Part shown: one piece after another, positions 11,275-23,514 of the stretch
How the letters are laid out: every line of letters begins with the position of its first letter
Position numbering within the stretch: the stretch's first letter is position 1
Assembly: GCA_934358675.1 (NCBI GenBank)
Contig: CAKRKX010000020.1
Location: 1 to 29,595 of the forward strand
Length of the DNA stretch: 29,595 bases
Direction of reading: 5' to 3'
Origin: an uncultured Agathobacter sp.
GTDB lineage: Bacteria > Bacillota > Clostridia > Lachnospirales > Lachnospiraceae
Position numbers and translations under genes: made by a program
Notes under the pieces: model-generated
Database searches by the model: none
What the model was told of the DNA's origin: nothing
What the model saw: the letters and a program-made list of their open reading frames with translations, nothing else

Positions 11275-11329
11275 GCACTGTGACCGATCACAGTGCTGCT
11301 TTGTTTTACGCATATTATACTCTCATTAT
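11275..11329 (-). promoter_or_regulatory. Promoter and leader hairpin of NUDIX gene
   Basis: A consensus -10 TATAAT lies at 11324-11329 on the minus strand, with no clear -35. An 8-bp hairpin, GCACTGTG / CACAGTGC (11275-11282, 11289-11296), is in the leader. There is no T-tract on the minus strand, so it is not called a terminator. Confidence 0.45.
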
Positions 11330-11345
11330 CATAGAATTTGTACTA

Positions 11346-11774
11346 TTAAATTGAGTAACTGAAACAAATTTTATCATTATAACTGTTCATCAGGTCGAGC
11401 AGCGTCACACTGTCCAATGTCTGCTCGATCTGCGTCTGTAGATTTCCCCACAGCTCATTGACCACAAGTTCCACCGGACGCTCCTGAATATCCTCCTGCT
11501 GCGTTGCAGGAATGAGTGGTCCGTCCACGGTACGAAGAATTTTTCCGATTGTGTAATTTTCAGGCTTTCTTGTCAGATGATAGCCACCATGATAGCCGCG
11601 TGTGCTGACGACAAATCCTGCCTTCTGCAAAACACTCAGAATCTGTTCCATATATTTTTCCGATAAGTCCTGTCGCTCAGCAATTGTCTTAACATTGATT
11701 GCCTCACCGTTCTCATGGATTGCGAGGTCTAAAAGAATGCGGATTGCATACTGCCCTCTGGATGAAATCAACAT
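11346..11774 (-). CDS. Rrf2-family regulator, CymR-like
   Basis: A 142-residue Rrf2 regulator: the winged helix opens MLISSRGQYAIRILLDLAIHENGEAINVKTIAERQDLSEKYMEQIL, and the wing contains STRGYHGGYHLTRKPENYTI. The three cysteines that hold an Fe-S cluster in IscR/NsrR are absent from the loop near residues 88-105 (PATQQEDIQERPVEL); the only Cys is near the C terminus. This is the pattern of CymR, the cysteine-metabolism repressor of Bacillus, which lacks a cluster and responds through CysK. Its ATG overlaps the trxB stop (ATGTTGA), so it is translationally coupled as the last gene of the sulfur operon. Control of the metY and cysK promoters is a strong inference but is not shown. Confidence 0.88.
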   Translation of the reverse strand: MLISSRGQYAIRILLDLAIHENGEAINVKTIAERQDLSEKYMEQILSVLQKAGFVVSTRGYHGGYHLTRKPENYTIGKILRTVDGPLIPATQQEDIQERPVELVVNELWGNLQTQIEQTLDSVTLLDLMNSYNDKICFSYSI

Positions 11775-12709
11775 GGTTTGCCGGACCTCCCTTCCTTATC
11801 ATTGGTTGTAAGATATTCGGTAATCGAACAGACTGCATTGGCACCGTCCGCCACCGCAGTCACGATCTGACGAAGGCGCTTCGTGCGCACATCTCCCGCA
11901 ACATACAGTCCGGCTCTCTCCGTCGCACCGTCTTCCCCCGCCGGAACATAGCCGTGTTCCAGCTTCATAAGCGGCGCATAAAGTGCCGACTGCGGCTCCA
12001 TGCCTACCGCGATAAAGACACCGTCCAAATCGATCCGTTTCGTCTCGTCCGTGGCCTTGTGATGCACCGCAATTCCGGTTACCTGCTTGTCTCCGAGGAT
12101 CTCCATGACTTCGCTCTCTCCGAGGAATGTAATCTTCTCGTTTGCAAATACCTGCTCCTGCAGCACCTTTGTGCCACGCACTTCGTTTCTGCGATGGATC
12201 AGATACACCTGTTTACAGATATTCGCAAGATAGAGTGCATCCTCAAGCGCCACGTCGCCACCGCCAATGACCGCAACGGTCTTATCCTTGAAAAAAGCAC
12301 CATCGCACGTCGCACAGTAAGACACGCCGGCTCCCGCAAATGTCTCCTCACCCGGGACGTCAAGCTTACGGTGTGTCGCACCGGTCGCAAGCAGAACGAT
12401 TTTCGTCTCGATATCTTCGCCGTCCGCCATATGAAGTGTCCATGTAGCGCCTTTTGCCACGATCTCTTCCACTTCACCTTCCGCAAATGCAACGTCGAGA
12501 TCCCTCGCATGCTGCTCAAACACTTCTGCCAGTTCGAATCCGCTCCGGTGATTCAAGCCGAGATAATTATCCACTTCTTCCGTATAGATCACCTGTCCGC
12601 CGGACATTGCTTCTTTTTCGATCACAAGAACCGAAAGGCACGCCCGCTTCGCATAGACAGCCGCGGAAAGTCCCGCCGGTCCACTTCCAATGATTACCAA
12701 ATCGTACAT
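11768..12709 (-). CDS. trxB: Thioredoxin reductase
   Basis: A 313-residue NADPH-dependent flavoprotein that reduces thioredoxin. It shows the FAD-binding GSGPAGLSAA near residue 8, the redox pair C132-A-T-C135 in GVSYCATCDGAFF, the NADPH-binding GGGDVALEDA near 160, and the C-terminal GLYVAGDVR FAD motif. Length is typical. It starts 11 bases after the JAMM protease stop with GAGAGG upstream and overlaps the Rrf2 gene. In this operon it would supply electrons to the thioredoxin at 14302-14619, which may recycle sulfur-transfer intermediates. Confidence 0.95.
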   Translation of the reverse strand: MYDLVIIGSGPAGLSAAVYAKRACLSVLVIEKEAMSGGQVIYTEEVDNYLGLNHRSGFELAEVFEQHARDLDVAFAEGEVEEIVAKGATWTLHMADGEDIETKIVLLATGATHRKLDVPGEETFAGAGVSYCATCDGAFFKDKTVAVIGGGDVALEDALYLANICKQVYLIHRRNEVRGTKVLQEQVFANEKITFLGESEVMEILGDKQVTGIAVHHKATDETKRIDLDGVFIAVGMEPQSALYAPLMKLEHGYVPAGEDGATERAGLYVAGDVRTKRLRQIVTAVADGANAVCSITEYLTTNDKEGRSGKPC

Positions 12710-12720
12710 ACTGTTCCTCT

Positions 12721-13143
12721 CTACTCAGCGGAGATCAGCTTGATTTCCTCCACTGTCACCTGCTTTTCGCGGTCGATATCAAATGCTTTCAGCACAAGAT
12801 TCTCCGGGTCCATGAGCGACAGGATCAGATAATTCACACTCGGATCGTACGCCAGGCGCTTATCCTCCTCCGAAGGGCGCGAAGGCGACTCCGGATGGGA
12901 ATGCCAGTTGCCGAGCGGAACGAGTCCGTTCGCGCGCATATCCTTAACCGCTGCAAGCTGCTCCTTCGGGTCCATTGAAAAATGCTCATTCGTGTGATCC
13001 ACGTTGGTCAGCAGGTATACTTTTTTAATTTCTTTGACGTCGCCGTCCTTGGTTCCGGCGATCAGTCCGCATGCCTCCTCCGGAAGGTTTGCCTTCGCGT
13101 GGGCGACAATCTTATCATAATCACTTTGCTTTAATGTCAGCAT
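12721..13143 (-). CDS. hcyD: JAMM metalloprotease, HcyD/Mec+-type
   Basis: A 140-residue zinc protease of the JAB1/MPN (M67) family. The full catalytic signature is present: Glu22/23 in LPEEACGLIAG, H81-S-H83, ten residues, then D94 (HSHPESPSRPSEED). Bacterial relatives next to ThiS/ThiF genes cut residues off sulfur-carrier proteins (HcyD in Wolinella) or release cysteine from a carrier (Mec+ in Mycobacterium). The carrier encoded two genes upstream ends GGGSF, so a trimming step is needed to expose Gly-Gly, which fits this enzyme. It starts only 2 bases after the ThiF-like stop. The symbol follows the Wolinella naming by analogy. Confidence 0.88.
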   Translation of the reverse strand: MLTLKQSDYDKIVAHAKANLPEEACGLIAGTKDGDVKEIKKVYLLTNVDHTNEHFSMDPKEQLAAVKDMRANGLVPLGNWHSHPESPSRPSEEDKRLAYDPSVNYLILSLMDPENLVLKAFDIDREKQVTVEEIKLISAE

Positions 13144-13145
13144 AA

Positions 13146-13952
13146 TTAATGATCCTCACATACCACCTGTTCATAGTCAATCAGTTCCGTAATCGTCGGA
13201 TGCTCTCCACAGATTGCACAATGTTTGTCTGCCTTTGGCAGCTTGATTGTGTGGAATTCCATCTTGAGTGCATCGAAAGTCAGAAGCTTTCCGGTCAGCA
13301 GATCGCCCACACCGATCAGATACTTGATTGCTTCCATTGCCTGAAGGCTTCCGATCACACCGCCCATCGCACCGATGACACCCGCCTGCTTACAGGTCGG
13401 TACTGCATCCTTTGGTGGTGGATTCTTGAATACACATCTGTAGCATGGTCCTTCTCCCGGCACATAGGTCATGAGCTGACCTTTGAAACGGATGATTCCT
13501 GCATGTGAAAAAGGCTTTTTCGCCATAACACAGGCATCGTTGATCAAGAACTTGGCCGGGAAATTGTCCGTGCCGTCAATGATGAAATCGTAATCCTTGA
13601 TCAGATCCATGATGTTCTCGGAAGTAACGAACTCACGGTATGTATTGACGGTGACATCCGGGTTCATGGCGTTCATGGTTTCCTTTGCGGATTTTACTTT
13701 TGCCTTACCCACATCGGCGGTACCGTGGATGATCTGTCTCTGTAAGTTTGACAGGTCGACCTCATCCGCATCGACGATACCGATGGTTCCGACACCTGCC
13801 GCAGCCAGATACATAGCTGCCGGTGCTCCGAGTCCGCCCGCACCGATGATTAAAACTTTTCCGTTAAGGAGCTTTTTCTGTCCCTTGACACCAACCTCCT
13901 GAAGGATGATGTGGCGGCTGTAACGCTCCATCTGTTCATTTGTAAATGCCAT
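13146..13952 (-). CDS. hcyF: ThiF/MoeB-type sulfur-carrier adenylyltransferase
   Basis: A 268-residue E1-like enzyme that activates the C-terminal glycine of a ThiS/MoaD-type protein as an acyl-adenylate. Visible features: the N-terminal RYSRHIILQEVG, the ATP-binding GAGGLGAPAA (from residue 37), the conserved SNLQRQIIHG, the DGTDNF Mg/ATP motif, the PTCKQAGVIG loop with a possible catalytic Cys, and two CxxC pairs (CYRC and CAIC) that bind structural zinc. No rhodanese domain is attached, unlike many MoeB fusions. Start and stop overlap: its ATG shares one base with the carrier stop (TAATG). Context separates it from thiamine or molybdopterin genes, none of which are present. Confidence 0.92.
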   Translation of the reverse strand: MAFTNEQMERYSRHIILQEVGVKGQKKLLNGKVLIIGAGGLGAPAAMYLAAAGVGTIGIVDADEVDLSNLQRQIIHGTADVGKAKVKSAKETMNAMNPDVTVNTYREFVTSENIMDLIKDYDFIIDGTDNFPAKFLINDACVMAKKPFSHAGIIRFKGQLMTYVPGEGPCYRCVFKNPPPKDAVPTCKQAGVIGAMGGVIGSLQAMEAIKYLIGVGDLLTGKLLTFDALKMEFHTIKLPKADKHCAICGEHPTITELIDYEQVVCEDH

Positions 13953-14161
13953 TAGAAGCTTCCTCCTCCCATGAAATATAAGAACTCGATGTTGTCGTTC
14001 TCTTTGACAACAACATTTTCCAGATCGTGATTCTCAACAAACTCATCATTGACCGTTACGGTAACGTATTCCGGGTTCTCAACCTTCTCGTCGATCACCA
14101 GCTGTGCCAATGTGATTCCCTCTGCAATATCCTTTACGTTTCCTGCGATTGTTACTTTCAT
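13952..14161 (-). CDS. hcyS: ThiS/MoaD-like sulfur carrier with masked C terminus
   Basis: A 69-residue ubiquitin-fold protein of the ThiS/MoaD type. Beta strands at the start (MKVTIAG) and around EYVTVTVNDEFV, and the late KENDNIEFLYFMGGG, follow ThiS. ThiS normally ends in Gly-Gly; this protein continues with Ser-Phe after Gly65-67. The carrier must therefore be cut before adenylation and thiocarboxylate formation, and a JAMM protease lies in the same operon. AAGGAG is about 8 bases before the ATG. The thiocarboxylated form would be the sulfur donor for MetY, as in the Wolinella HcyS system. Use in thiamine or cofactor synthesis is less likely from context. Confidence 0.88.
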   Translation of the reverse strand: MKVTIAGNVKDIAEGITLAQLVIDEKVENPEYVTVTVNDEFVENHDLENVVVKENDNIEFLYFMGGGSF

Positions 14162-14178
14162 TTTCGTTCTCCTTGTCC

Positions 14179-14274
14179 TTAGAATATCAACTTGCCCAAA
14201 TCATCCAAGTCAATATGCCTCATTGTTATCATTTTACGGAAATTCCGTCTGAAATCTCCTGTGAATGAGTTCAT
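14179..14274 (-). CDS. Possible 31-residue peptide in trx-hcyS gap
   Basis: The 140-base gap between thioredoxin and the carrier gene holds an open frame of 31 codons beginning ATG AAC and ending ...RHIDLDDLGKLIF. The same frame is open all the way back to the thioredoxin stop codon (14302-14304), giving 40 sense codons directly after it. The peptide is basic in the middle and acidic-hydrophobic at the end. No good ribosome site is seen before 14274. It may be a real small protein, the remnant of a longer thioredoxin tail, or chance. I do not recognise it. Confidence 0.25.
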   Translation of the reverse strand: MNSFTGDFRRNFRKMITMRHIDLDDLGKLIF

Positions 14275-14301
14275 CGCTTTGATGCACTCATCAAATTCAA
14301 A

Positions 14302-14619
14302 TTAAAGTGCCTTCCGGATCAATTCCTCAAGTTGCGGGCGCTTCGTCAGTCCTCTTGCGCGCTCCACTTCCTGTCCGTCTTTAAAAAGCAGCAATGTCGG
14401 CGATGCCATCACGGAATACTGCTCCGCAAGTTCTGCATCAAAATTAACGTTCACCTTCACAACCTTAAGCTTATCCTCATAATCATCCTCAATATCTCCG
14501 AGGATCGGTGACATCTGCTTGCACGGGATGCAGGAATCGGAATAAAATTCGACGAGTACCGGAAGTTCTGAATTTAAGACTTCCGCCTCGAAATTGTCCT
14601 TGCTGATTCTTGCTGCCAT
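14302..14619 (-). CDS. Thioredoxin with CIPC active site
   Basis: A 105-residue thioredoxin fold with all usual elements: the ELPVLVEFYSDSC30-I-P-C33-K active site, then P.L..I..., the strand LKVVKVNVNFD, and the cis-proline loop MASPTLLLFKDG. The site differs from the standard W-C-G-P-C: Trp is Ser and Gly is Ile, which should change its redox potential and partners. It starts one base after the TusA-like stop and belongs to the sulfur operon with trxB. It may reduce disulfides or persulfides during sulfite reduction or carrier thiolation. That role is inferred from position only. Confidence 0.92.
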   Translation of the reverse strand: MAARISKDNFEAEVLNSELPVLVEFYSDSCIPCKQMSPILGDIEDDYEDKLKVVKVNVNFDAELAEQYSVMASPTLLLFKDGQEVERARGLTKRPQLEELIRKAL

Positions 14620-14620
14620 C

Positions 14621-14866
14621 CTACTCCTCCAGTTTCTTTACGATCAGATCGTAAGTTCCGTTCTCGTTGTCGATCAGCTTCAATACCTGCTGACCTTCTT
14701 CCTTAAAGCTTCTCGGCACATTCTGTACCGGCTCGCCGTCGTTCATGGTGACTGCAAGCACCTGTCCGACTTCCAGCTCTTCCATCGCAACTTTTGCCTT
14801 TACAAACGTCATCGGACAAACCACATCCGTAATATCTACTCTCTCGTCAATTGTGTAATCAGCCAT
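14621..14866 (-). CDS. TusA/SirA-type sulfurtransferase
   Basis: An 81-residue protein of the TusA family, which carries persulfide sulfur on a conserved cysteine. The key Cys-Pro pair is C17-P18 in DITDVVCPMTFVKAKVAMEEL, followed by the family's EVGQVLAVTMNDGEPVQNVPRS, and the beta strand GTYDLIVKKL ends it. Its ATG lies inside the end of the sulfite reductase gene (ATGGCTGA, 8-base overlap), a sign of tight coupling. In this setting it probably passes reduced sulfur from the sulfite reductase toward the sulfur carrier; no cysteine desulfurase is nearby. Wider TusA-like families of unknown function share this fold. Confidence 0.88.
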   Translation of the reverse strand: MADYTIDERVDITDVVCPMTFVKAKVAMEELEVGQVLAVTMNDGEPVQNVPRSFKEEGQQVLKLIDNENGTYDLIVKKLEE

Positions 14867-15722
14867 TGTACGCCTCCTCTATCACTTTCTTAAATTGATC
14901 TAATCCTACTCTTTCAATGGTCATGCGGAAACGCTCTCCCGGATTGGCATTGTCATCAAAGAACTGGATTGCCGCATCCGTGATCCGGAACAATTCCTCT
15001 TCTGTCCGGACGATCGGCAGATAATTCTCGCCTTTATATACGCGGTTACCGAACAGTCCTCCGAAAGATACCTCAAATGCCGGCGTTCCCTTCCACGCAT
15101 CCGTCGGGCACGCTTTCACGCAGCGTCCACAGTTGTTACATTTATCCTGATCCAGCACGATGTCACCGGCCTCATTCTGGCTCAGTGCATTCACGCGGCA
15201 GGTCTTTTCACAGATTCCGCAGTTGATGCAGGCATCCTTATCCCACTCAACGATCGATGCCCCCTTGATTCCGACATCGTTCTCCTCTGCCTTCAGACAG
15301 TTGTTCTGACATCCGGTTACACCGAACTTAAACTTGTGCGGAAGCTCTCTTGCGAAATAACGCTCGTCCAGCTTCTGTGCAATATCGTAGCTGTCAATGT
15401 TACCACTCGGACAGACAGCCGAACCCTGACAGGCAGTGATCGTACGAACACGCGGTCCGCACACACCCGGCTTGCATCCGCCGGTTGCAAGCACATCCTT
15501 AACCTCTTCCACATCATCCAGTTTGATGAAAGGGATCTCCACACTCTGGCGGGAAGTCAGATGCACATGTCCGTCACCGTATTTATCTGCGACATCTGCG
15601 ATAATCTTCAGATTTTCAGCGGTCAGATTACCGCCGACCACTGCAAGTCGCAGAGAAAAATGATTCTTTTGTTTCTGGCGCATGAAACCGCCTTTTTTTA
15701 ATGTTGCATAATCAACTGCCAT
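14859..15722 (-). CDS. Small siroheme sulfite reductase with ferredoxin domain
   Basis: A 287-residue redox protein. Residues 20-95 form a nitrite/sulfite reductase half-domain (HVHLTSRQSVEIPFI). The siroheme-[4Fe-4S] ligands follow as C98-x5-C104 and C138-x3-C142 (TACQGSAVC, TGCQNNC). A two-cluster ferredoxin insert follows, with C165, C168, C171, C175 and C195, C198, C201, C205. The C-terminal segment completes the reductase fold. This resembles the compact sulfite reductases of anaerobes (AsrC, Fsr-C-terminal and DsrAB relatives), which take electrons from ferredoxin. Reduction of sulfite to sulfide is inferred from its place next to metY, trx and the HcyS module. A nitrite-reducing role is possible but does not fit the neighbours. 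A GGAG site precedes the ATG. Confidence 0.88.
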   Translation of the reverse strand: MAVDYATLKKGGFMRQKQKNHFSLRLAVVGGNLTAENLKIIADVADKYGDGHVHLTSRQSVEIPFIKLDDVEEVKDVLATGGCKPGVCGPRVRTITACQGSAVCPSGNIDSYDIAQKLDERYFARELPHKFKFGVTGCQNNCLKAEENDVGIKGASIVEWDKDACINCGICEKTCRVNALSQNEAGDIVLDQDKCNNCGRCVKACPTDAWKGTPAFEVSFGGLFGNRVYKGENYLPIVRTEEELFRITDAAIQFFDDNANPGERFRMTIERVGLDQFKKVIEEAYNG

Positions 15723-15796
15723 AATGTTCTCCTTTTATCCTGTGCTCTCTCTCGTTTTTCTATTCAAGGATCATACCCCGGGTGCCACCTTTCCAT

Positions 15797-17032
15797 TTAA
15801 ATGTCGGCAGTGTCTGCGATCGCCGATTCGAAATCTTTGACCAGATCTTCGATATCTTCAATTCCGACACTCACCCGGATCATATCGTCATAGACGGCTG
15901 CATCGCGCTTCTCTTCTTCCGTGCTATGTGCCGCAAGTGTTGACTCCGGATGCACGATCAGTGTCTTGGTATCGCCGATGTTAGATACGATCTGTGGAAT
16001 CTTCAGCTGATTCATAATTGCAAAAGCTCTCGCCTTGCTTCCGACGCGAATCGTCAGGATCGCGCCGTACCGCTCATCTAAAATCCTCTCTGCAATCTCA
16101 TGCCAAGGACTGGAATACAGTCCCGGATAATTTACGGTGATTCCCGGGATCTTGTCTAAGTAAGCCGCAAGCTGCGCCGCGTTGTCACACGCCCGCTCCA
16201 TCCGAAGTCCTAAAGTCTCCAGACCGAGCAGATTGTAAAACGCCGTCTGCGGCGCCATACAGGCTCCCATATTCCGGAACAGTCCGTTGCGAAGCTTCGC
16301 AGTAAAAGCGAATCTGCCGAACTTGATATAATCCTTCATTCCAGGATATTGTTGCACATTCCACTTAAAATTTCCACTGTCGGTTATCACACCGCTGATT
16401 GCGCTGCTGTTGCCGTTGATATATTTGGAAGTGGAGTTGATGACAATGTCGGCTCCAAGCTCGATCGGCTTTACGAGAAAAGCTGTCGCTACCGTATTAT
16501 CGATCACAAGCGGAAGTCCGTGCTCATGTGCCAGTTTTGCCCATGCCTCAATGTCTGTGACATCCAGCTTCGGATTGCCGATTGTCTCCGCGAAGACGGC
16601 CCGCGTATTGTCAGTAATTGCAGCTTCCACAAGGCTTAAATCTCCGCCATCCACGAAAATCGTTTTGATTCCGAACGCCTCCAGATCATGAAACAGATCG
16701 ATCGTTCCTCCGTAAAGGCTCGTGCTTGCGATGATCTCATTGCCGCTTCCTACGATATTCAGAAGTGCGTTCGTGAGCGCCGCCATACCGGAGGCACATG
16801 CGACCGACGCAACTCCCCTCTCCAGCACCGTCATGCGTTCCTCAAACGCGGCGATGGTAGGATTATTAATTCTCGTGTAAGAGTATCCGTTTGCTTTATT
16901 ATGAAACAGCTTCTCGTGCTGCTCCGCCGAAGGCTGAAAGAAAGCACTGGACTGGTACACCGGAGTGAGCGTCGCACCTGTATGCGGATCACCGGTTTTC
17001 GTACCGTGTAAAAGTTCTGTGTTGAATCCCAT
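15797..17032 (-). CDS. metY: O-acetylhomoserine sulfhydrylase
   Basis: A 411-residue PLP enzyme of the Cys/Met-metabolism family that makes homocysteine from O-acetylhomoserine and a sulfur donor. Seen: the N-terminal GFNTELLHG...GATLTPVYQSSAF, YSYTRINNPT (active-site Tyr/Arg), the ASGMAALTNALL phosphate-binding loop, the D-N-T (IDNTVATAF) pyridine-N-binding Asp, and the PLP lysine K203 in NSTSKYINGNSS. Standard MetY has ...KxIxGHG here; the NGNSS variant is unusual. The start at 17032 is chosen because AAGGG lies 8 bases upstream; the ORF extends upstream to 17095 without support. It leads the operon that contains the HcyS carrier, so the donor is probably thiocarboxylated carrier rather than free sulfide. 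Confidence 0.92.
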   Translation of the reverse strand: MGFNTELLHGTKTGDPHTGATLTPVYQSSAFFQPSAEQHEKLFHNKANGYSYTRINNPTIAAFEERMTVLERGVASVACASGMAALTNALLNIVGSGNEIIASTSLYGGTIDLFHDLEAFGIKTIFVDGGDLSLVEAAITDNTRAVFAETIGNPKLDVTDIEAWAKLAHEHGLPLVIDNTVATAFLVKPIELGADIVINSTSKYINGNSSAISGVITDSGNFKWNVQQYPGMKDYIKFGRFAFTAKLRNGLFRNMGACMAPQTAFYNLLGLETLGLRMERACDNAAQLAAYLDKIPGITVNYPGLYSSPWHEIAERILDERYGAILTIRVGSKARAFAIMNQLKIPQIVSNIGDTKTLIVHPESTLAAHSTEEEKRDAAVYDDMIRVSVGIEDIEDLVKDFESAIADTADI

Positions 17033-17069
17033 TTGCATTTCCCTTAATTCATACTTTTCTACTAGGTTT

Positions 17070-17112
17070 AATATGTTATAAACACTATACCCCACTAAAG
17101 TATGTTTGTCAA
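17070..17112 (-). promoter_or_regulatory. Promoter of metY operon with shared sulfur motif
   Basis: On the minus strand TTGACA (17107-17112), a 17-base spacer and TATAGT (17084-17089). The plus-strand block ATACCCCACTA (17087-17097) spans the end of the -10 and the adjoining spacer, and AATATGTTAT (17070-17079) lies in the early leader. Both blocks recur in the cysK promoter. A repressor bound here would block polymerase; the Rrf2 protein of this operon is the candidate. Confidence 0.85.
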
Positions 17113-17163
17113 GATATAAATTACACTATTTTACTAGGAATACTAAGATTTAGTAAGTCAAAC

Positions 17164-17200
17164 GCGGCGGTACACTACTTTACTTGTAGTATACCGCCGC
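17164..17200 (-). terminator. Hairpin after the anti-sigma gene
   Basis: A GC-rich 15-bp stem (17164-17178 with 17186-17200), with one U-G pair on the minus strand, closes a 7-base loop. It lies just past the stop at 17224. The T-tract after it is short (GTTTGACTT), so termination may be partial. Confidence 0.7.
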
Positions 17201-17223
17201 GCAAATACATCTTGGGACTTCTT

Positions 17224-18105
17224 TTAAAAACCATTCATCCAACGAGTTGCCAATTCATTTACTTTGTTTTCATCTTCTTTCTGATATCTGATATCCAGAG
17301 TATAAATAACATTGTTTTCCTGCCAATATACCATTTTATTAAGCCAGCCATCCTCAAATTCGGTGGAATCTACCACCCAGAATTCGCGTCCGTTTGTGAC
17401 CACTGTTTCTCCCGAATAATCTACGCCCGGAAAATCATCGGAGTAGCTGGTTGCTCCTACACTAATTTCTCCATTATAGTTTTCTGTAAATATCCGTGCT
17501 TCCGTTTGCGCCTCAATTTCCCCATTCATTTTGTAATTAGAAATTAAAGTAAGATCTGTAATTTTTCCTTCTTGTGTTCCATCGACAAACAGATTTACGG
17601 ACTTCGTTTTTTCATTGAATCGTGTCCATACAAACTTATCATATCCAATATAGTCAAGTGCATCCTTAATACTATCAAATGATTTATCAATTCCATAAGG
17701 GCTTTGTGAACTATACATATTGTTAGCCACTACCTGATTCTTTATGATCGATTCGCATTCTTTTATGTTTCCCTTAAAGTTCTTTATATTAACTCTTGTC
17801 GCATCATCTACAACAAATGTTACATCTGTATTTTTATCCGATGCCTCGTTTGCTTTATGGAAAAAGAGTTTTCCCGATGATACCAAATGCGCATACACAA
17901 CCACGGATGCCGAGCCAATCAGGAAAAACAAGGCAAGCCCGACGAGAACCGGTACAAATGATTTTTTTGTGAAACGCTTTTGCGAACAATCCACTTCTCT
18001 TTTATAATCTCCATTCAATTGCATCAATTGATTTAATATCCGCTTATCACTCTGCGGATTTAATTCTATTTTTTCCCATGACTCTGCTATTTTATTTTTT
18101 CTCAA
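17224..18105 (-). CDS. Membrane anti-sigma factor-like protein (DUF4367-like)
   Basis: A 293-residue protein with a cytosolic N-terminus (about 48 residues), one membrane helix (about residues 50-75, VPVLVGLALFFLIGSASVVVYAHL) and a large outer domain of beta strands. The C-terminal part (FWVVDSTEFEDGW...VYWQENNVIYTLDIRY) resembles DUF4367 domains found in anti-sigma proteins. It begins at a TTG that overlaps the stop of the ECF sigma gene (TTGA), implying coupled translation. The arrangement is that of a cognate anti-sigma factor holding the sigma factor at the membrane until an outer signal arrives. The cytosolic segment has no zinc-binding HxxxCxxC motif, so it is not a classical ZAS type. 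Confidence 0.75.
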   Translation of the reverse strand: MRKNKIAESWEKIELNPQSDKRILNQLMQLNGDYKREVDCSQKRFTKKSFVPVLVGLALFFLIGSASVVVYAHLVSSGKLFFHKANEASDKNTDVTFVVDDATRVNIKNFKGNIKECESIIKNQVVANNMYSSQSPYGIDKSFDSIKDALDYIGYDKFVWTRFNEKTKSVNLFVDGTQEGKITDLTLISNYKMNGEIEAQTEARIFTENYNGEISVGATSYSDDFPGVDYSGETVVTNGREFWVVDSTEFEDGWLNKMVYWQENNVIYTLDIRYQKEDENKVNELATRWMNGF

Positions 18106-18584
18106 TCAACCTCACCAAGCCTTTCTTTCAAAATACCTCTAGCTTCTCTTAAGTGATTTCTGACAGTCGAAGACGGTTTCTTTAAAATTGTTGCAATCTC
18201 TTCGCTATTATATCCTTCATAATAAAACAGATATACAACGGTCTTGTATTTGTCGGGAAGATTTCGGATTGCCTCCATGGTTTCATCAATCTTCATTTCT
18301 TCCCCTGATGCATCTTCCATTTCATCCATATGAACACATTTTTTCTGCCAATGCTTTAACGCATTTTTGCACAAATTTGTTGCGACCCGGATCAGCCATG
18401 CCTTCTCATGTTCCGCATTTTCAAAAGAAGGAGCTTTCCGGATCAATTGGACAAATGTATCGCTTACCATGTCCTCCGCCTCAGAAACATTCTTCATATA
18501 AGCAAAGCAAATTCGGTATATCATATTGCTGTACTCATGGTATATTCTTTCAATTTCACCATTCGATCGAATTACTTTTTTCAC
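18102..18584 (-). CDS. ECF RNA polymerase sigma factor
   Basis: A 160-residue ECF sigma factor. Region 2 (residues about 11-75: IERIYHEYSNMIYRICFAYMKNVSEAEDMVSDTFVQLI...AWLIRVATNLCKN) binds the -10 and core polymerase. Region 4 (LPDKYKTVVYLFYYEGYNSEEIATILKKPSSTVRNHLREARGIL) reads the -35. The start is a GTG at 18584 with a strong AAAGGAGG 6 bases upstream. It lies inside the sulfur island between the two operons. A sulfur link is not implied by sequence, and a cell-envelope signal is as likely. Confidence 0.92.
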   Translation of the reverse strand: MKKVIRSNGEIERIYHEYSNMIYRICFAYMKNVSEAEDMVSDTFVQLIRKAPSFENAEHEKAWLIRVATNLCKNALKHWQKKCVHMDEMEDASGEEMKIDETMEAIRNLPDKYKTVVYLFYYEGYNSEEIATILKKPSSTVRNHLREARGILKERLGEVD

Positions 18585-18723: not shown

Positions 18724-20418
18724 TTAGTTCCAATGCTGATCCTTGAACACGATCTTACGATATGTCTCAAAATCAACCCATTTATTAAAGAAGTTTTCGG
18801 AAATGCTGCTGCCCTCCGATGCAAGCTCTGCCTTGAATGCATCAAGATCCGTCTGGCTGCTCACATGTACGGCGAAGCCGCGTCCGTTGATAACCGGTAC
18901 ATCATTGTATGTATAATCCGCAAGCGGCTGGATGACTGTGATCCTGCGGTCGCGTACCTGTACTGCTACCTGATCGCGGAGTACGACAACATCGAAGCTG
19001 TCCGGATACCGGTAAGACTCGCCTTCAACCGGAATCTCGTCGCCGATCGTGTAGGTCTTGCCGGATGGCTGCACCTTGAATACAGTCATGCTCTCCAGGT
19101 CATAGTAGAACTCCTCGAAGATATCTCCGTTGGCTTTCAGGTTGCCGGATACAAATGCGCATTTGACATCCTTGCTCTCATCAAGTGCCGGATTCTCGAC
19201 AACACCACACGCGGAAGTCATGTTCGTGATACGGTCGATCAGTATCAGCTCGCCGAGTGTCTTATGCGATAAAAATGCATCAAGTACGATCTCTTCCTGA
19301 AGTACCAGATCACAGACTGCAATCTCATTCTTTCTGAGGCGTCCGACCGGAATGTACTCACCGGTGTTGACATCGATCTTGTACTGGATATTCTTAAGGA
19401 TTCCCGGAATGGTTTCCGTTCCGATCTTGACCAGATAATCCTTGCCGACAGTCAGTTCCTGATCATCCATCCACAGGATCGTTGCGGTAAATTTCTTGCT
19501 GACCGGGAGCTCTACGGTTGTAAGAACGCAGCCTCTGGATACATCCACTTCCTTGTCAAGTTGAATCGTTACCGGGCGTCCGGCATCGGCACTGTCCGCA
19601 TTCCTGTCGCCGACTAAGATGCTCTTGACCTTGGCATGCTCATTGCTCGGAAGCGTAATGATTTCATCGCCGACTGCGATGCTGCCGCTTTCGATCTGCC
19701 CCTGGAATCCACGGAAGGTATGATCCGGACGGCACACACGCTGTACCGGCATATAGAATCCGTCCTCCTGCTTTTTCTCGCTGACATCGATATCCTCAAG
19801 ATAAGAAAGGAGCACCGGTCCGTCATACCAGTTCATCTTGTCGGAACGCTTTGTGACATTATCGCCCTCCGTTGCGGAAACCGGAATGATCTGCACGCTT
19901 GCAAGCGAAAGCTCATTGGAAAGTTCCTCAATCTGTGCGGTGATCTCCTTGAAACGGTCCTCGCTGTAATCCACAAGATCCATCTTGTTAACTGCAAATA
20001 CAAAGTATTTGATTCCCATCAAAGCGCAGATTCTCGCGTGGCGTCTGGTCTGCACAAGCACACCCTGCTTTGCATCCACGAGGATGACGGCAAGGTCTGC
20101 AAACGACGCGCCGACCGCCATGTTTCTTGTATATTCTTCGTGGCCCGGTGTATCTGCCACGATAAAACTTCTCTTATCGGTTGTGAAGTAACGGTATGCG
20201 ACGTCGATCGTGATACCCTGCTCACGCTCTGCCATCAGACCGTCAAGAAGCAGTGAATAGTCGATTGCACCGCCGCGGCTTCCGACTTTGGAGTCCAATT
20301 CCAATGCCTTTTCCTGATCTGCGTACAGCAGCTTGGAATCGTATAAAATATGTCCGATCAGTGTTGACTTTCCGTCATCCACACTTCCGCAGGTAATAAA
20401 TTTCAGTAATCCGCTCAT
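18724..20418 (-). CDS. cysN: Sulfate adenylyltransferase GTPase subunit, extended C terminus
   Basis: The large subunit of ATP sulfurylase, 564 residues. The GTPase domain has GSVDDGKST (P-loop), the switch sequences REQGITIDVAYRY and DTPGHEEYTRNM, and NKMD. Two EF-Tu-like beta domains follow (about 235-425). With CysD it couples GTP hydrolysis to formation of adenylylsulfate (APS) from ATP and sulfate. It is about 90 residues longer than the 475-residue Escherichia coli protein. The extension (about 440-564) has no APS-kinase P-loop, so this is not a CysNC fusion; I do not recognise it. Its ATG overlaps the cysD stop (TAATG), and the operon terminator follows. Confidence 0.93.
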   Translation of the reverse strand: MSGLLKFITCGSVDDGKSTLIGHILYDSKLLYADQEKALELDSKVGSRGGAIDYSLLLDGLMAEREQGITIDVAYRYFTTDKRSFIVADTPGHEEYTRNMAVGASFADLAVILVDAKQGVLVQTRRHARICALMGIKYFVFAVNKMDLVDYSEDRFKEITAQIEELSNELSLASVQIIPVSATEGDNVTKRSDKMNWYDGPVLLSYLEDIDVSEKKQEDGFYMPVQRVCRPDHTFRGFQGQIESGSIAVGDEIITLPSNEHAKVKSILVGDRNADSADAGRPVTIQLDKEVDVSRGCVLTTVELPVSKKFTATILWMDDQELTVGKDYLVKIGTETIPGILKNIQYKIDVNTGEYIPVGRLRKNEIAVCDLVLQEEIVLDAFLSHKTLGELILIDRITNMTSACGVVENPALDESKDVKCAFVSGNLKANGDIFEEFYYDLESMTVFKVQPSGKTYTIGDEIPVEGESYRYPDSFDVVVLRDQVAVQVRDRRITVIQPLADYTYNDVPVINGRGFAVHVSSQTDLDAFKAELASEGSSISENFFNKWVDFETYRKIVFKDQHWN

Positions 20419-21317
20419 TAGAAATAGCCCTCCCTTTTTCTTCTTTCCATGCTGCCGGCCGCCTCGTTATCAATCACTCGGGTGGTTCGCTCCGACTCGA
20501 CCGCGCTTAAGGTCTCATCGATGATCTCATCGAGTGTGGTTGCGGTGGATTCGATACCACCGGTCAGCGGGTAGCAGCCAAGTGTACGGAAACGCACACT
20601 CTTGTGCTCGATCTTCTCACCCGGACGAAGCTTCAGGCGGTCATCATCTACCATGATGATCTGTCCGTCACGCTCGATGACCGGACGCTCCGCTGCAAAG
20701 TAAAGCGGCACGATGTCGATGTTCTCTCTCTTGATGTATTCCCAGATATCGGTCTCTGTCCAGTTGGAAATCGGGAAGACACGGATGCTCTCGCCCTTGT
20801 GGATCTTCGAGTTGTAAAGTTTCCACATCTCCGGGCGCTGGTTCTTCGGATCCCATGCATGGTTCTCGTTACGGAAGGAGAAGATTCGCTCCTTCGCACG
20901 GGACTTCTCCTCGTCGCGTCGTCCGCCACCGAACGCAGCGGTAAATCCGTATTTGTTTAACGCCTGCTTCAACGCCTGCGTTTTCATGATGTCAGTGTAA
21001 GCACTGCCATGATCGAATGGGTTGATGCCCTGCTTTACGCCATCCTCATTGATGTATTCGATCATCTCGATGCCAAGTTTCTTGGCTGTCTCATCACGGA
21101 ACTTGATCATTTCCTTGAATTTCCATGTCGTGTTGACATGCAGGAATGGGAAAGGTGGCTTCTCCGGATAGAAGGCTTTCATCGCCAGATGGAGCATTAC
21201 GGAGCTGTCTTTTCCGATGGAATACAGCATTACCGGTTTCTCACACTCGGCTGCCACTTCTCGTATAATGTAGATTGCCTCTGCTTCGAGTGCATCAAGA
21301 TGGGATAATTCACTCAT
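20418..21317 (-). CDS. cysD: Sulfate adenylyltransferase subunit 2
   Basis: A 299-residue small subunit of ATP sulfurylase, of the PP-loop adenylyltransferase family. It shows the PP-loop [14 protein letters not shown], the [12 protein letters not shown] and [15 protein letters not shown] segments, and [16 protein letters not shown] near the C terminus, all characteristic of CysD rather than CysH. The C-terminal RKREGYF is the usual end. An AAAGGAGG site precedes the ATG. The genes aprA-aprB-cysD-cysN run in one direction with small gaps, so activation and reduction of sulfate are co-expressed. Confidence 0.96.
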
Positions 21318-21341: not shown

Positions 21342-21656
21342 TTAATATTTATTCGAATCTTTCTTGTTTACCGTAATTACTTCGGTTGTGCCATCTGTCT
21401 TATCAATCTGCCAATTGAGCAGATCTCCCTGCGTGGAGACCGTCATCTTACTGCCCATACCGCCGATATCGGCTCCCAGATAGAACGAGATTGCACCGAA
21501 TGCACACTCCTTGATACAGGAAGCGCAGCCCCAGCAGTCCTTCGGATAACGGATGTAGGCTTTCTTATTCTCATCCAGTTCGATCAGACTTCCCGGACAG
21601 ACAGCGGTACACTTTGTACAGCCTTTGCATTTAAGTTTGTTAATTGAAATGCTCAT
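21342..21656 (-). CDS. aprB: APS reductase-type beta subunit (two [4Fe-4S])
   Basis: A 104-residue ferredoxin-like protein. Cluster one: C10-x2-C13-x2-C16-x3-C20-P (KCKGCTKCTAVCPG). Cluster two: C41-x2-C44-x2-C47-x3-C51 (DCWGCASCIKECAFGA). The tail (WQIDKTDGTTEVITVNK) resembles that of AprB, which wraps around AprA. AprB of sulfate reducers is longer (about 150-165 residues), so this is a short form. The ATG at 21656 is chosen for the AGGAGG 8 bases upstream; a longer frame to 21695 lies in a hairpin region. It would feed electrons to AprA. Confidence 0.88.
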   Translation of the reverse strand: MSISINKLKCKGCTKCTAVCPGSLIELDENKKAYIRYPKDCWGCASCIKECAFGAISFYLGADIGGMGSKMTVSTQGDLLNWQIDKTDGTTEVITVNKKDSNKY

Positions 21657-21682
21657 ACCGCATTCCTCCTTTCTTGGAACAT

Positions 21683-21716
21683 CAGCCCATTCCAATTCGC
21701 CTTCGGCGAAGGGCTG
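21683..21716 (-). other. Hairpin upstream of aprB
   Basis: A two-part hairpin: an outer CAGCCC/GGGCTG pair and an inner TTCGCC-GAA-GGCGAA stem, with 7 unpaired bases on one side. There is no T-tract. It lies between the aprA stop and the aprB ribosome site and may stabilise or process the transcript. Confidence 0.6.
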
Positions 21717-21725
21717 ACGCTACAT

Positions 21726-21750
21726 GTCAACTTTCAAAAGAAAAGTTGAC
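21726..21750 (-). other. Hairpin over the aprA stop codon
   Basis: A perfect 9-bp stem GTCAACTTT / AAAGTTGAC with a 7-base loop. The aprA stop codon (21727-21729) is in the 3' arm. It could affect termination of translation or mRNA decay. It is followed closely by the second hairpin. Confidence 0.6.
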
Positions 21751-23514
21751 ACCTTTCACTAAGTCTCTGTAGATCATCTCGATCCTGCCGTCCACCAGAC
21801 GGGAATTCACATAGCGCAGCCATTCATCGGACTTCTCCGGATAATCCAGATTCTCCGCAAAGCTGTGCCAGCGCGTCTCTTTTCTCGCACGCAGATGTGC
21901 GATCACAGTCAGGCAGACCGTCAGCCGTTCCTTTAATTCATACACAAACATCAGCTCATGCATGTCTTCCGCTTTCAGCCCCTCCGCAAGTGTCTGGATC
22001 TGTTTGATCTTCTCCTCCGCCATATCCAGCTGCTTCGCATTAAACTGATAATGGGTTCCGATGCCTCCTGCGTAAGTATCCATCACTTTCTGCATCGCTT
22101 CTTCCAACTGCTCCACGGTAAACACCGCGTTTTCTTTCTGTAAGATGGCATCGTACTCAGCAACTTTGTCGTTCAGACTTTGAACCGATTGCGCAACTTC
22201 ATGATTCCATGCCGCCTCTGTATCGTTCTTGATCTCAGCAATGTCCGTTCCGTTCGCTGTATCGGTGTGCGCATCTTCTATGCTTCCGGTCACACCCCTG
22301 TGGGCTTCTTCCGCATCGAGCTGCTCCACCATGCGAAGCGCTGCGATCTCGCCCTCAACCAGGGCTCCGGTCACATACTTCTGTGGACATCCGCCCGCTA
22401 CATCGCCTGCGGCAAAAAGCCCGCGGATCGTTGTCTCACGGTTTGTGTCCACCCAATAACCGCTCGCCGTGTGTCCTCCGACAATATACGGCTCGGTGCC
22501 TTCGATCTCCACATTCTGCTCACTTGGGTTCTTTCCTGACTCTACCCATTTGAGGGTCTGACTCGGAGCCATGTTCAGGTACGCCTTGCGAAGCGCATCG
22601 TCCTGTTCCGCGCTGATACCTTCCGTCCGCAGATAACACGGTCCGCGCCCTTCCAGATTCTCCTGCACAGTTCCGTACACACGCTGCGAAGTGGTCAGAC
22701 CGTATTTTGTCTCATACACCTCGCCCAAAGCATTCACCTGCTTCGCGCCGACGCCCTGTGCAATCGTTCCGGTCGGTGCGATCGTGTCTTTGCACCGGAG
22801 TGCGATAAAACGCATCTCGAAAGTGGTCATCTCTGCACCCGCGCGGATTCCCATCGCGTAACCCGCTCCCGTGTTAAATGGTGGATACCACATCTTATGT
22901 CTGGAGAATCCCGGATTGTTCGGTTTGTACAATCCTGCGGCTCCTCCGGTTGCGATCAGCACTTTCTTTGCACGGATCTCATATGCTTTCTGCTCCTCGA
23001 TGGAGAAACCATACGCACCCTGAATCTCATTGTTTTCTACAATATAATCTGTAATATTTAAACGGTTGATCACCGTCACGTCATCTAATTTTGCTACCGC
23101 ATCCGCAAGCAGCGGCTTGAAATTCTCACCGTTAATCTTGATGTTGCGATTTCCTCTGGCAACATACTCACCGTTCTCATCTTTTAAGATGACCAGTCCG
23201 AGCTGTTCCAGCTTTGCGGTCACACGGTTCAGTCCCTCCGACATGGTCAGAAGCAGATCCTCACGCACAATGTTGTCCGCATCCTTCTTCGCATAATCCA
23301 CATAATCCTGTGGCTTTCTGCCTTTTACAATATAAGCATTTAAAGCGTTGACTCCGGCTGCCAGACAACCGCTTCGTTTGATGTTGGCTTTCTCCGCGAT
23401 CACCACCGAATAGTCCGAATGCTCCCGGATTGTCAATGCCGCGTAGCAGCCGGCGGTTCCGCCGCCGATGATCAGGATATCTGTATATAAAACTTCTTTT
23501 TGATCGATTTTCAT
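21727..23514 (-). CDS. aprA: APS reductase-type alpha subunit (flavoprotein)
   Basis: A 595-residue FAD enzyme of the fumarate reductase/AprA superfamily. Seen: the Rossmann FAD site DILIIGGGTAGCYAAL, the KRSGCLAAGVNALNAY segment, LIATGGAAGLYKPNN, and the catalytic-region motifs FEMRFIALRCKDT, YIVGGHTASGYWVD and LFAAGDVAGGCPQKYVTGALVEGE. The helical C-terminal domain ends near VNFSFES. The neighbours aprB and cysDN make APS the clear substrate: it should reduce adenylylsulfate to sulfite and AMP. AprA normally serves energy metabolism in sulfate reducers; here everything around it is assimilatory. A homologous fumarate or other reductase function cannot be excluded by sequence alone. GAGAGG lies 8 bases before the ATG. 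Confidence 0.85.
   Translation of the reverse strand: MKIDQKEVLYTDILIIGGGTAGCYAALTIREHSDYSVVIAEKANIKRSGCLAAGVNALNAYIVKGRKPQDYVDYAKKDADNIVREDLLLTMSEGLNRVTAKLEQLGLVILKDENGEYVARGNRNIKINGENFKPLLADAVAKLDDVTVINRLNITDYIVENNEIQGAYGFSIEEQKAYEIRAKKVLIATGGAAGLYKPNNPGFSRHKMWYPPFNTGAGYAMGIRAGAEMTTFEMRFIALRCKDTIAPTGTIAQGVGAKQVNALGEVYETKYGLTTSQRVYGTVQENLEGRGPCYLRTEGISAEQDDALRKAYLNMAPSQTLKWVESGKNPSEQNVEIEGTEPYIVGGHTASGYWVDTNRETTIRGLFAAGDVAGGCPQKYVTGALVEGEIAALRMVEQLDAEEAHRGVTGSIEDAHTDTANGTDIAEIKNDTEAAWNHEVAQSVQSLNDKVAEYDAILQKENAVFTVEQLEEAMQKVMDTYAGGIGTHYQFNAKQLDMAEEKIKQIQTLAEGLKAEDMHELMFVYELKERLTVCLTVIAHLRARKETRWHSFAENLDYPEKSDEWLRYVNSRLVDGRIEMIYRDLVKGVNFSFES

What the first reader, a model, noticed from the sequence alone, without database searches (positions are those of the whole stretch)
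12721..14161. Protein-thiocarboxylate sulfur transfer cassette whose carrier needs trimming
The ThiS-like carrier ends GGGSF, so Gly-Gly is hidden behind Ser-Phe. A ThiF-type activating enzyme and a JAMM protease with a complete HxH-x10-D signature follow with 1-base overlap and 2-base gap. This matches the HcyS/HcyF/HcyD logic described in Wolinella succinogenes, where metY is the acceptor, and metY heads this operon. Its place in a Clostridia-type genome, fused in one operon with sulfite reductase, TusA, thioredoxin and trxB, seems little described.
Basis: partly seen in the sequence, partly recalled or inferred. Interest (0 to 1): 0.8.

Follow-up and report, generated by a model that had tools for sequence, protein, structure and literature searches.

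The report
Capped sulfur-carrier operon for methionine synthesis
A gut bacterium carries a known but seldom annotated protein-based sulfur delivery system for making methionine, whose carrier protein probably has to be trimmed by its own protease; related genomes hint that such proteases also prepare the vitamin B1 sulfur carrier.

Summary
In detail: a ThiS-like carrier ending FMGGGSF, an E1-type enzyme without rhodanese domain and a JAMM protease with full catalytic motif, in a minus-strand operon with metY, sulfite reductase, TusA, thioredoxin and trxB. The HcyS/HcyF/HcyD reading is the best one. The claim that it is little described in Clostridia fails: Iyer et al. 2006 (PMC1779556, Table 1 row 4e) lists this operon type, clostridia included. 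New lead: the thiamine carrier ThiS, encoded elsewhere, is capped or fused to ThiG in 33 of 96 genomes read that have a JAMM and in 0 of 58 without one detected. Among hcy+ genomes this goes with lack of a dedicated ThiF: 13 of 21 against 1 of 18. Phylogeny-aware support is only suggestive. The cassette is a new member of a known kind; sharing of HcyD and HcyF with thiamine synthesis would be new.

The parts
15797..17038 (-). metY (PLP-dependent homocysteine synthase, likely acceptor of the carrier's sulfur). The listed frame opens at GTG 17095, but ATG 17038 or 17032 is the likelier start because the promoter-like site overlaps the GTG
   Evidence: Cys_Met_Meta_PP 374.5 bits; TIGR01326 439 bits, below its cut-off of 495.1; start is inference
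17084..17112 (-). promoter-like site TTGACA-17-TATAGT ahead of metY
   Evidence: 11 of 12 consensus positions, best of 13 sites in 11300-18000; 9.9 +/- 3.3 expected by chance, so the number of sites is not enriched
14859..15722 (-). small sulfite reductase with added 4Fe-4S ferredoxin domain
   Evidence: NIR_SIR 101.5 bits, NIR_SIR_ferr 76.3; nearest NCBIfam TIGR02912 sulfite_red_C 159 bits, below its cut-off of 324
14621..14866 (-). tusA (persulfide carrier)
   Evidence: TusA 67.9 bits
14302..14619 (-). thioredoxin with atypical CIPC site
   Evidence: Thioredoxin 88 bits; sequence
13952..14161 (-). HcyS-type sulfur carrier, capped ...GGG-Ser-Phe
   Evidence: cap conserved in kind in 76 of 76 carriers
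13146..13952 (-). HcyF-type E1 adenylating enzyme, no rhodanese domain
   Evidence: ThiF 298 bits over residues 11-245 of 268; MoeB subfamily NF004281 297.7 bits, cut-off 266
12721..13143 (-). HcyD-type JAMM metalloprotease
   Evidence: Prok-JAB 90.6 bits; catalytic residues invariant; matches solved chain 2kks_A, 159.1 bits
11768..12709 (-). trxB-like reductase
   Evidence: Pyr_redox_2 162.8 bits; TIGR01292 323.9 bits, just below its cut-off of 343
11346..11774 (-). Rrf2-family regulator-like ORF at the operon's end
   Evidence: ORF; family assigned by eye and recall, not by a profile search
21727..23514 (-). aprA (APS reductase alpha), upstream sulfate-reduction gene, separate unit
   Evidence: NF005331 939.9 bits, cut-off 557
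21342..21695 (-). aprB-like ferredoxin subunit
   Evidence: TIGR02060 58 bits, below its cut-off of 135.65; position after aprA
18724..21317 (-). cysD and cysN (ATP sulfurylase)
   Evidence: ORFs 21317-20418 and 20418-18724; names by recall of the sequences, no profile search

Best explanation
This is an HcyS/HcyF/HcyD-type sulfur relay at the end of an assimilatory sulfate pathway. Sulfate is taken up, activated and reduced to sulfite (CysDN, AprAB) and then to sulfide (Sir), possibly handed on by TusA and Trx/TrxB. The carrier is made with a two-residue cap; the JAMM protease (HcyD) cuts after the third Gly, exposing Gly-Gly; the E1 (HcyF) adenylates it and sulfide or a TusA persulfide turns it into a thiocarboxylate; MetY joins it to O-acetylhomoserine; HcyD probably also releases homocysteine from the adduct. 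Shown here: genes, order, cap, catalytic motif, conservation, association of cap with JAMM. Inferred: every chemical step, and the role of TusA and Trx.
For: Gene set and motifs. Carrier caps: 76 of 76 next to this JAMM, none ending at GGG; 10 of 10 hcy-type carriers in an independent draw of 106 Lachnospirales genomes, 9 of them with the JAMM inside the locus read. Bacillota draw of 199 genomes, 150 listed PF02597 matches read: JAMM-linked 10 of 10 with residues after GG (5 caps, 5 carrier-E1 fusions), unlinked 20 of 140, 120 ending exactly at GG (Fisher p 2.6e-8, not corrected for kinship). Same-strand neighbours within 5 kb of 65 carriers: metY 57, sir 52, tusA 59. Same operon type in PMC1779556 row 4e. 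Capped carriers needing a JAMM are reported in Streptomyces (PMC6006322, passages). The Wolinella pathway itself is recalled from the abstract of Krishnamoorthy and Begley 2011; the paper is not held, its citation was seen in PMC5764234.
Against: No chemistry could be tested. No Wolinella HcyS/HcyF/HcyD sequence could be compared. MetY is not specifically closest to 3ri6 (the Wolinella MetY, by recall): it ranks 17th at 287.5 bits against 361.8 for 8sf5. Seven of 65 loci lack metY, 13 lack sir and six lack tusA within 5 kb, so some relatives may feed another acceptor. Two loci (L060, L077) have E1 and JAMM but no carrier found beside them.
Confidence: 0.85

Rival explanations
1. Broader sharing: the JAMM (HcyD) and E1 (HcyF) of this cassette also serve ThiS of thiamine synthesis in trans, trimming its cap or cutting a ThiS-ThiG fusion, and HcyF replaces a missing ThiF. 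This adds to the best explanation rather than excluding it.
For: ThiS in thi loci is capped or fused to ThiG in 13 of 21 hcy+ genomes without ThiF (fam2) and 1 of 18 with it (Fisher p 2.6e-4); in 0 of 14 JAMM-negative Lachnospirales genomes; in 5 of 19 JAMM-positive and 0 of 32 JAMM-negative Bacillota carriers next to thiG; in 14 of 38 JAMM-positive and 0 of 12 JAMM-negative Pseudomonadota genomes read. In G001, G003, G021, G424 and G425 (ThiS capped or fused) the only E1 matches found are HcyF and a TcdA-like protein. Iyer et al. 2006 suggested that JAB might cleave fused ThiS (section 16).
Against: On a ThiG tree there are only 9 supported independent pairs; JAMM goes the same way in 5.1 on average, never the other way, sign test median p 0.06 (0.25 without the hcy-selected genomes). 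63 of 96 JAMM-positive genomes have uncapped ThiS. G352 has ThiF and a capped ThiS; eight ThiF-less hcy+ genomes have uncapped ThiS. In Pseudomonadota the JAMM is not hcyD (28-43% identity apart from G015) and no E1 or carrier was found within 1.5 kb of 19 such JAMMs.
Confidence: 0.5
2. The JAMM acts only after sulfur transfer, like Mec+ in the CysO system (recalled), hydrolysing the carrier-homocysteine adduct; the Ser-Phe cap is removed by another protease or is harmless.
For: The Mec+ precedent, and a second, adduct-cleaving role for HcyD, are recalled from the Wolinella abstract.
Against: It does not explain why carriers beside a JAMM are always capped (76 of 76; 10 of 10 against 20 of 140) nor why carrier-E1 fusions occur beside JAMM (5 cases).
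Confidence: 0.12
3. The three genes are a ubiquitin-like conjugation and deconjugation system rather than a sulfur relay.
For: Iyer et al. 2006 considered conjugation for E1 plus JAB operons (section 16); the JAMM's best NCBIfam match is haloarchaeal desampylase, 81.2 bits, under its cut-off of 130.
Against: Neighbours are sulfate assimilation and metY, and no E2-like gene was identified among the operon ORFs examined (no dedicated E2 search was run).
Confidence: 0.04
4. It is simply a second thiamine ThiS/ThiF pair.
For: The carrier passes the NCBIfam thiS equivalog cut-off (52 against 37.45 bits).
Against: No thiG or thiH is listed near it; hcy+ genomes often have a separate ThiS next to thiG.
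Confidence: 0.03

Closest known systems
HcyS/HcyF/HcyD/MetY protein-thiocarboxylate methionine pathway of Wolinella succinogenes (Krishnamoorthy and Begley 2011, doi 10.1021/ja107424t; paper not held, recalled)
   Same: carrier, E1, JAMM, MetY and sulfite reductase in one cluster; carrier with residue(s) after Gly-Gly
Operon type 4e of Iyer, Burroughs and Aravind 2006 (PMC1779556)
   Same: ThiS/MoaD-like, JAB, rhodanese-less E1, SirA/TusA, sulfite reductase, O-acetylhomoserine sulfhydrylase, sulfate genes; several clostridia listed
   Different: they say SirA is always present; here tusA is near 59 of 65 carriers
Capped sulfur carriers of Streptomyces platensis, PtmS2 (cap MV) and PtmS3 (cap C), with JAMM PtmS1 and E1 PtmS4 (PMC6006322, passages); QbsE/QbsD in quinolobactin synthesis
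   Same: short cap after GG; JAMM and E1 needed
   Different: acceptor is a natural-product pathway; the product is a small-molecule thioacid
CysO / Mec+ cysteine synthesis of Mycobacterium (recalled)
   Same: protein thiocarboxylate, JAMM and a PLP enzyme for amino-acid sulfur
   Different: product cysteine; JAMM releases it from the adduct

Membership tests
HcyS/HcyF/HcyD pathway | carrier with residues after the C-terminal Gly-Gly | tested here: met
   GGG-Ser-Phe; profile ends at Gly67; 76 of 76 relatives capped
HcyS/HcyF/HcyD pathway | E1 enzyme without rhodanese domain, next to the carrier | tested here: met
   ThiF domain only, residues 11-245 of 268, no rhodanese match
HcyS/HcyF/HcyD pathway | JAMM protease with complete catalytic residues in the cluster | tested here: met
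HcyS/HcyF/HcyD pathway | MetY and sulfite reductase in the same cluster | tested here: met
   no terminator-like site found on the minus strand in 11300-18000
HcyS/HcyF/HcyD pathway | sequence kinship to the Wolinella proteins | tested here: inconclusive
   only MetY could be compared: 3ri6 (Wolinella by recall) 287.5 bits, 17th of 60 shown; no Wolinella HcyS, HcyF or HcyD sequence was found in the calls
HcyS/HcyF/HcyD pathway | JAMM removes the cap; E1 makes the thiocarboxylate; MetY uses it with O-acetylhomoserine | not testable with these tools
   biochemistry
Iyer 2006 operon type 4e | ThiS/MoaD-like, JAB, rhodanese-less E1, SirA/TusA, OAH sulfhydrylase, sulfite reductase | tested here: met
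SAMP-type conjugation (desampylase) | JAMM passes the desampylase cut-off | tested here: not met
   NF041370 81.2 bits against 130
thiamine ThiS/ThiF | encoded with thiG/thiH | tested here: not met
   neighbours are metY, sir, tusA, trx, JAMM, trxB

The most novel reading that the evidence does not exclude
One JAMM protease and one E1 enzyme, annotated as the methionine pathway's HcyD and HcyF, are shared maturation enzymes for several sulfur carriers in gut Clostridia: they also uncap or cut loose and activate the thiamine carrier ThiS, which in these genomes has gained a cap or become fused to ThiG after loss of its own ThiF. More widely, ThiS-ThiG fusions can exist only where a JAMM protease is present to cut at Gly-Gly.
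Probability: 0.5. Interest if true: 0.6.

Novelty: new member of a known kind. Interest (0 to 1): 0.4.

Why it matters
It places an abundant gut lineage among organisms that move sulfur into methionine on a protein rather than as free sulfide, and it makes the trimming step directly testable. If JAMM sharing with ThiS is true, thiamine pathways that look incomplete for lack of ThiF would be complete, capped and ThiG-fused ThiS proteins would be explained, and methionine and vitamin B1 synthesis would depend on the same two enzymes.

Tried and rejected
The window's own genome is not held, so its own ThiS and ThiF could not be checked; relatives were used. The Wolinella paper is not held. A search for the gene names HcyS/HcyF/HcyD found only homocysteine papers among the 20 listed, with no occurrence of HcyD or HcyF. 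Rfam search of the whole window at gathering scores found no RNA family, so no riboswitch supports the methionine link. Counts of promoter-like sites do not exceed chance. Structure prediction was not run.

The first read of genome-search loci assumed that all lay on the plus strand and gave wrong C-termini; it was redone with strands. L307 was misread at a clipped contig and re-fetched as L363. L119 was counted as not JAMM-linked, although one search shows a JAMM about 1.4 kb downstream, outside the fetched flank.

The idea that every cap needs a JAMM in the same genome is not fully borne out: of 10 short-capped unlinked carriers of the Bacillota set, five (G101, G137, G212, G024, G171) lie in genomes without a strong PF14464 match. 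I counted as JAMM only matches of about E 1e-8 or better; weaker matches in frames of about 230 aa were taken as RadC-like, by recall. Carriers with neither thiG nor a ThiF/E1 beside them, or fused to E1, were left out of the ThiS tables (L082, L084, L282, L287, L315); L338 (G456), with neither found nearby, was kept as an uncapped ThiF-less case.

Full report
What is there. On the minus strand the window holds metY (from about 17038 down to 15797), a small sulfite reductase (15722-14859), tusA (14866-14621), a thioredoxin (14619-14302), a ThiS-like carrier (14161-13952), an E1-type enzyme (13952-13146), a JAMM protease (13143-12721), a trxB-like gene (12709-11768) and an Rrf2-like ORF (11774-11346) (families; Rrf2 by eye). 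The stated overlap of 1 base and gap of 2 bases are right. A good promoter-like site (TTGACA-17-TATAGT) lies just before metY and no terminator-like site was found on the minus strand between 18000 and 11300, though such scans are weak evidence. Upstream, by profile or by recall, are aprA, an aprB-like gene, cysDN, a sulfate ABC transporter and cysK.

Who carries it. The window's own carrier sequence has no name in the protein collection; carriers 97% identical to it are named Lachnobacterium sp. and Agathobacter sp.. The window genome itself is not held. A scan of 84,980 species genomes gave 545 stretches encoding a relative of the JAMM; the best 80 were kept: Roseburia, Agathobacter, Blautia, Ruminococcus, Clostridium homopropionicum, and also Fibrobacter, Succinimonas and Treponema.

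The cap. Both ThiS profiles end at Gly67, so Ser68-Phe69 are extra. In the 80 loci plus the window, 76 carriers were found; all 76 end in GGG plus 1-6 residues and none ends at GGG: Q 22, C 19, R 15, SF 8, SL 2, AR 2, and CL, SR, TR, RF, QR, AWH, SNGND and SYGING once each. Five loci gave no carrier (L011, L060, L063, L077, L080), three of them because the contig starts at the JAMM or inside the E1. As a control, 150 listed PF02597 matches from 199 Bacillota genomes were read (the list was cut at 150, best scores first). Without one: 120 of 140 end exactly at GG, 10 have short caps, 10 long extensions.

What is known. Iyer et al. 2006 described this operon type, with the rhodanese-less E1 and SirA/TusA, and named Wolinella and several clostridia; they proposed that sulfur from sulfate/sulfite ends up on the carrier (PMC1779556: passages, sections 12 and 16). 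The HcyS/HcyF/HcyD biochemistry is recalled from the abstract of Krishnamoorthy and Begley 2011; PMC5764234 (passages) cites it as the protein thiocarboxylate pathway and says that as of 2017 it was absent from MetaCyc and KEGG. Capped carriers needing a JAMM are also reported in Streptomyces (PMC6006322, passages). So the cassette is a new member of a known kind. Differences in detail: TusA is near 59 of 65 carriers, not always, and MetY is not specifically closest to 3ri6, which I recall as the Wolinella enzyme.

A lead outside the coordinates. In genomes with this cassette a second ThiS lies in the thi locus (before thiG and thiH), and it too often has residues after GG: SC in Blautia, C in a Ruminococcus, SR in a Lachnospira, CGTSLMYRSIM in Roseburia faecis; in Butyribacter, ThiS is fused to ThiG. 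I read such ThiS in 39 hcy+ genomes. Without a dedicated ThiF (TIGR02354 over its cut-off) 13 of 21 are capped or ThiG-fused; with it, 1 of 18 (p 2.6e-4, not corrected for kinship). In 14 of 14 JAMM-negative Lachnospirales genomes ThiS ends at GG. In the Bacillota draw, thiG-linked ThiS is capped or fused in 5 of 19 JAMM-positive and 0 of 32 JAMM-negative cases. In Pseudomonadota, 50 ThiS were read (30 best-scoring loci plus 20 I picked, 19 of them JAMM-positive with short frames): 13 ThiS-ThiG fusions and one cap, all among the 38 JAMM-positive; 0 of 12 JAMM-negative. Twelve further JAMM-positive genomes have frames over 300 aa that were not read. Together: 33 of 96 against 0 of 58. In five ThiF-less genomes with capped or fused ThiS the only E1 matches are HcyF and a TcdA-like protein; the latter scores 152-171 bits to the TcdA model, below its cut-off of 304, with no other family at E 1e-40.

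How far this can be trusted. The genomes are related. On a ThiG tree of 147 of the 154 cases there are at least 11 changes of state; in 9 supported independent pairs JAMM goes the same way in 5.1 on average and never the other way, sign test median p 0.06; without the genomes chosen for their hcy cluster there are 5 pairs and median p 0.25. Many JAMM-positive genomes keep uncapped ThiS (63 of 96). Eight ThiF-less hcy+ genomes have uncapped ThiS, and one ThiF-bearing genome (G352) has a cap. In Pseudomonadota the JAMMs are distant from HcyD, and no E1 or carrier was found within 1.5 kb of 19 of them. Five capped carriers of other kinds sit in Bacillota genomes without a strong JAMM match. Iyer et al. 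2006 had already suggested that JAB might cut fused ThiS, and stated that thiamine operons hold no JAB gene; the paper searches made here showed no test of this by co-occurrence, within a library that lacks most subscription journals.

Most likely mechanism. Sulfate to sulfide by CysDN, AprAB and Sir; HcyD uncaps the carrier; HcyF adenylates it; sulfide or a TusA persulfide gives the thiocarboxylate; MetY uses it with O-acetylhomoserine; HcyD frees homocysteine. The genes, the cap, the motif and the associations are shown; the chemistry and the roles of TusA and Trx are inferred. Sharing of HcyD and HcyF with ThiS is my boldest reading, at about even odds.

Noticed in passing
window 14302-14619 (-) and loci: The operon's thioredoxin has CIPC in place of CGPC. 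Among 51 Trx-like ORFs in the 80 loci plus window the first CxxC is CVPC in 30, CIPC in 17, CGPC in 1 and not found in 3: a specialised thioredoxin whose partner is unknown.
   Followed up: partly
L161, L162, L163, L165, L167 (and L082): Carrier-E1 fusion proteins with Gly-Gly inside the chain, next to a JAMM gene: a JAMM cut would be needed to free the carrier.
   Followed up: partly
L111 (G101), L116 (G137), L131 (G212), L232 (G024), L262 (G171): Capped carriers in genomes with no strong Prok-JAB match: another protease, an incomplete assembly, or caps that do no harm.
   Followed up: no
window 17224-18105 and 18102-18584 (-): A sigma-factor-like ORF and, by its place, a likely anti-sigma gene sit between cysN and metY (by eye), splitting the sulfate genes into two units.
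   Followed up: no
L019, L032, L034, L066, L070: Several loci, most of them Fibrobacter, show two JAMM-like ORFs close together in the hcy locus: duplication or a broken frame, not checked.
   Followed up: no
L060 and L077: E1 and JAMM present but no carrier found beside them.
   Followed up: no
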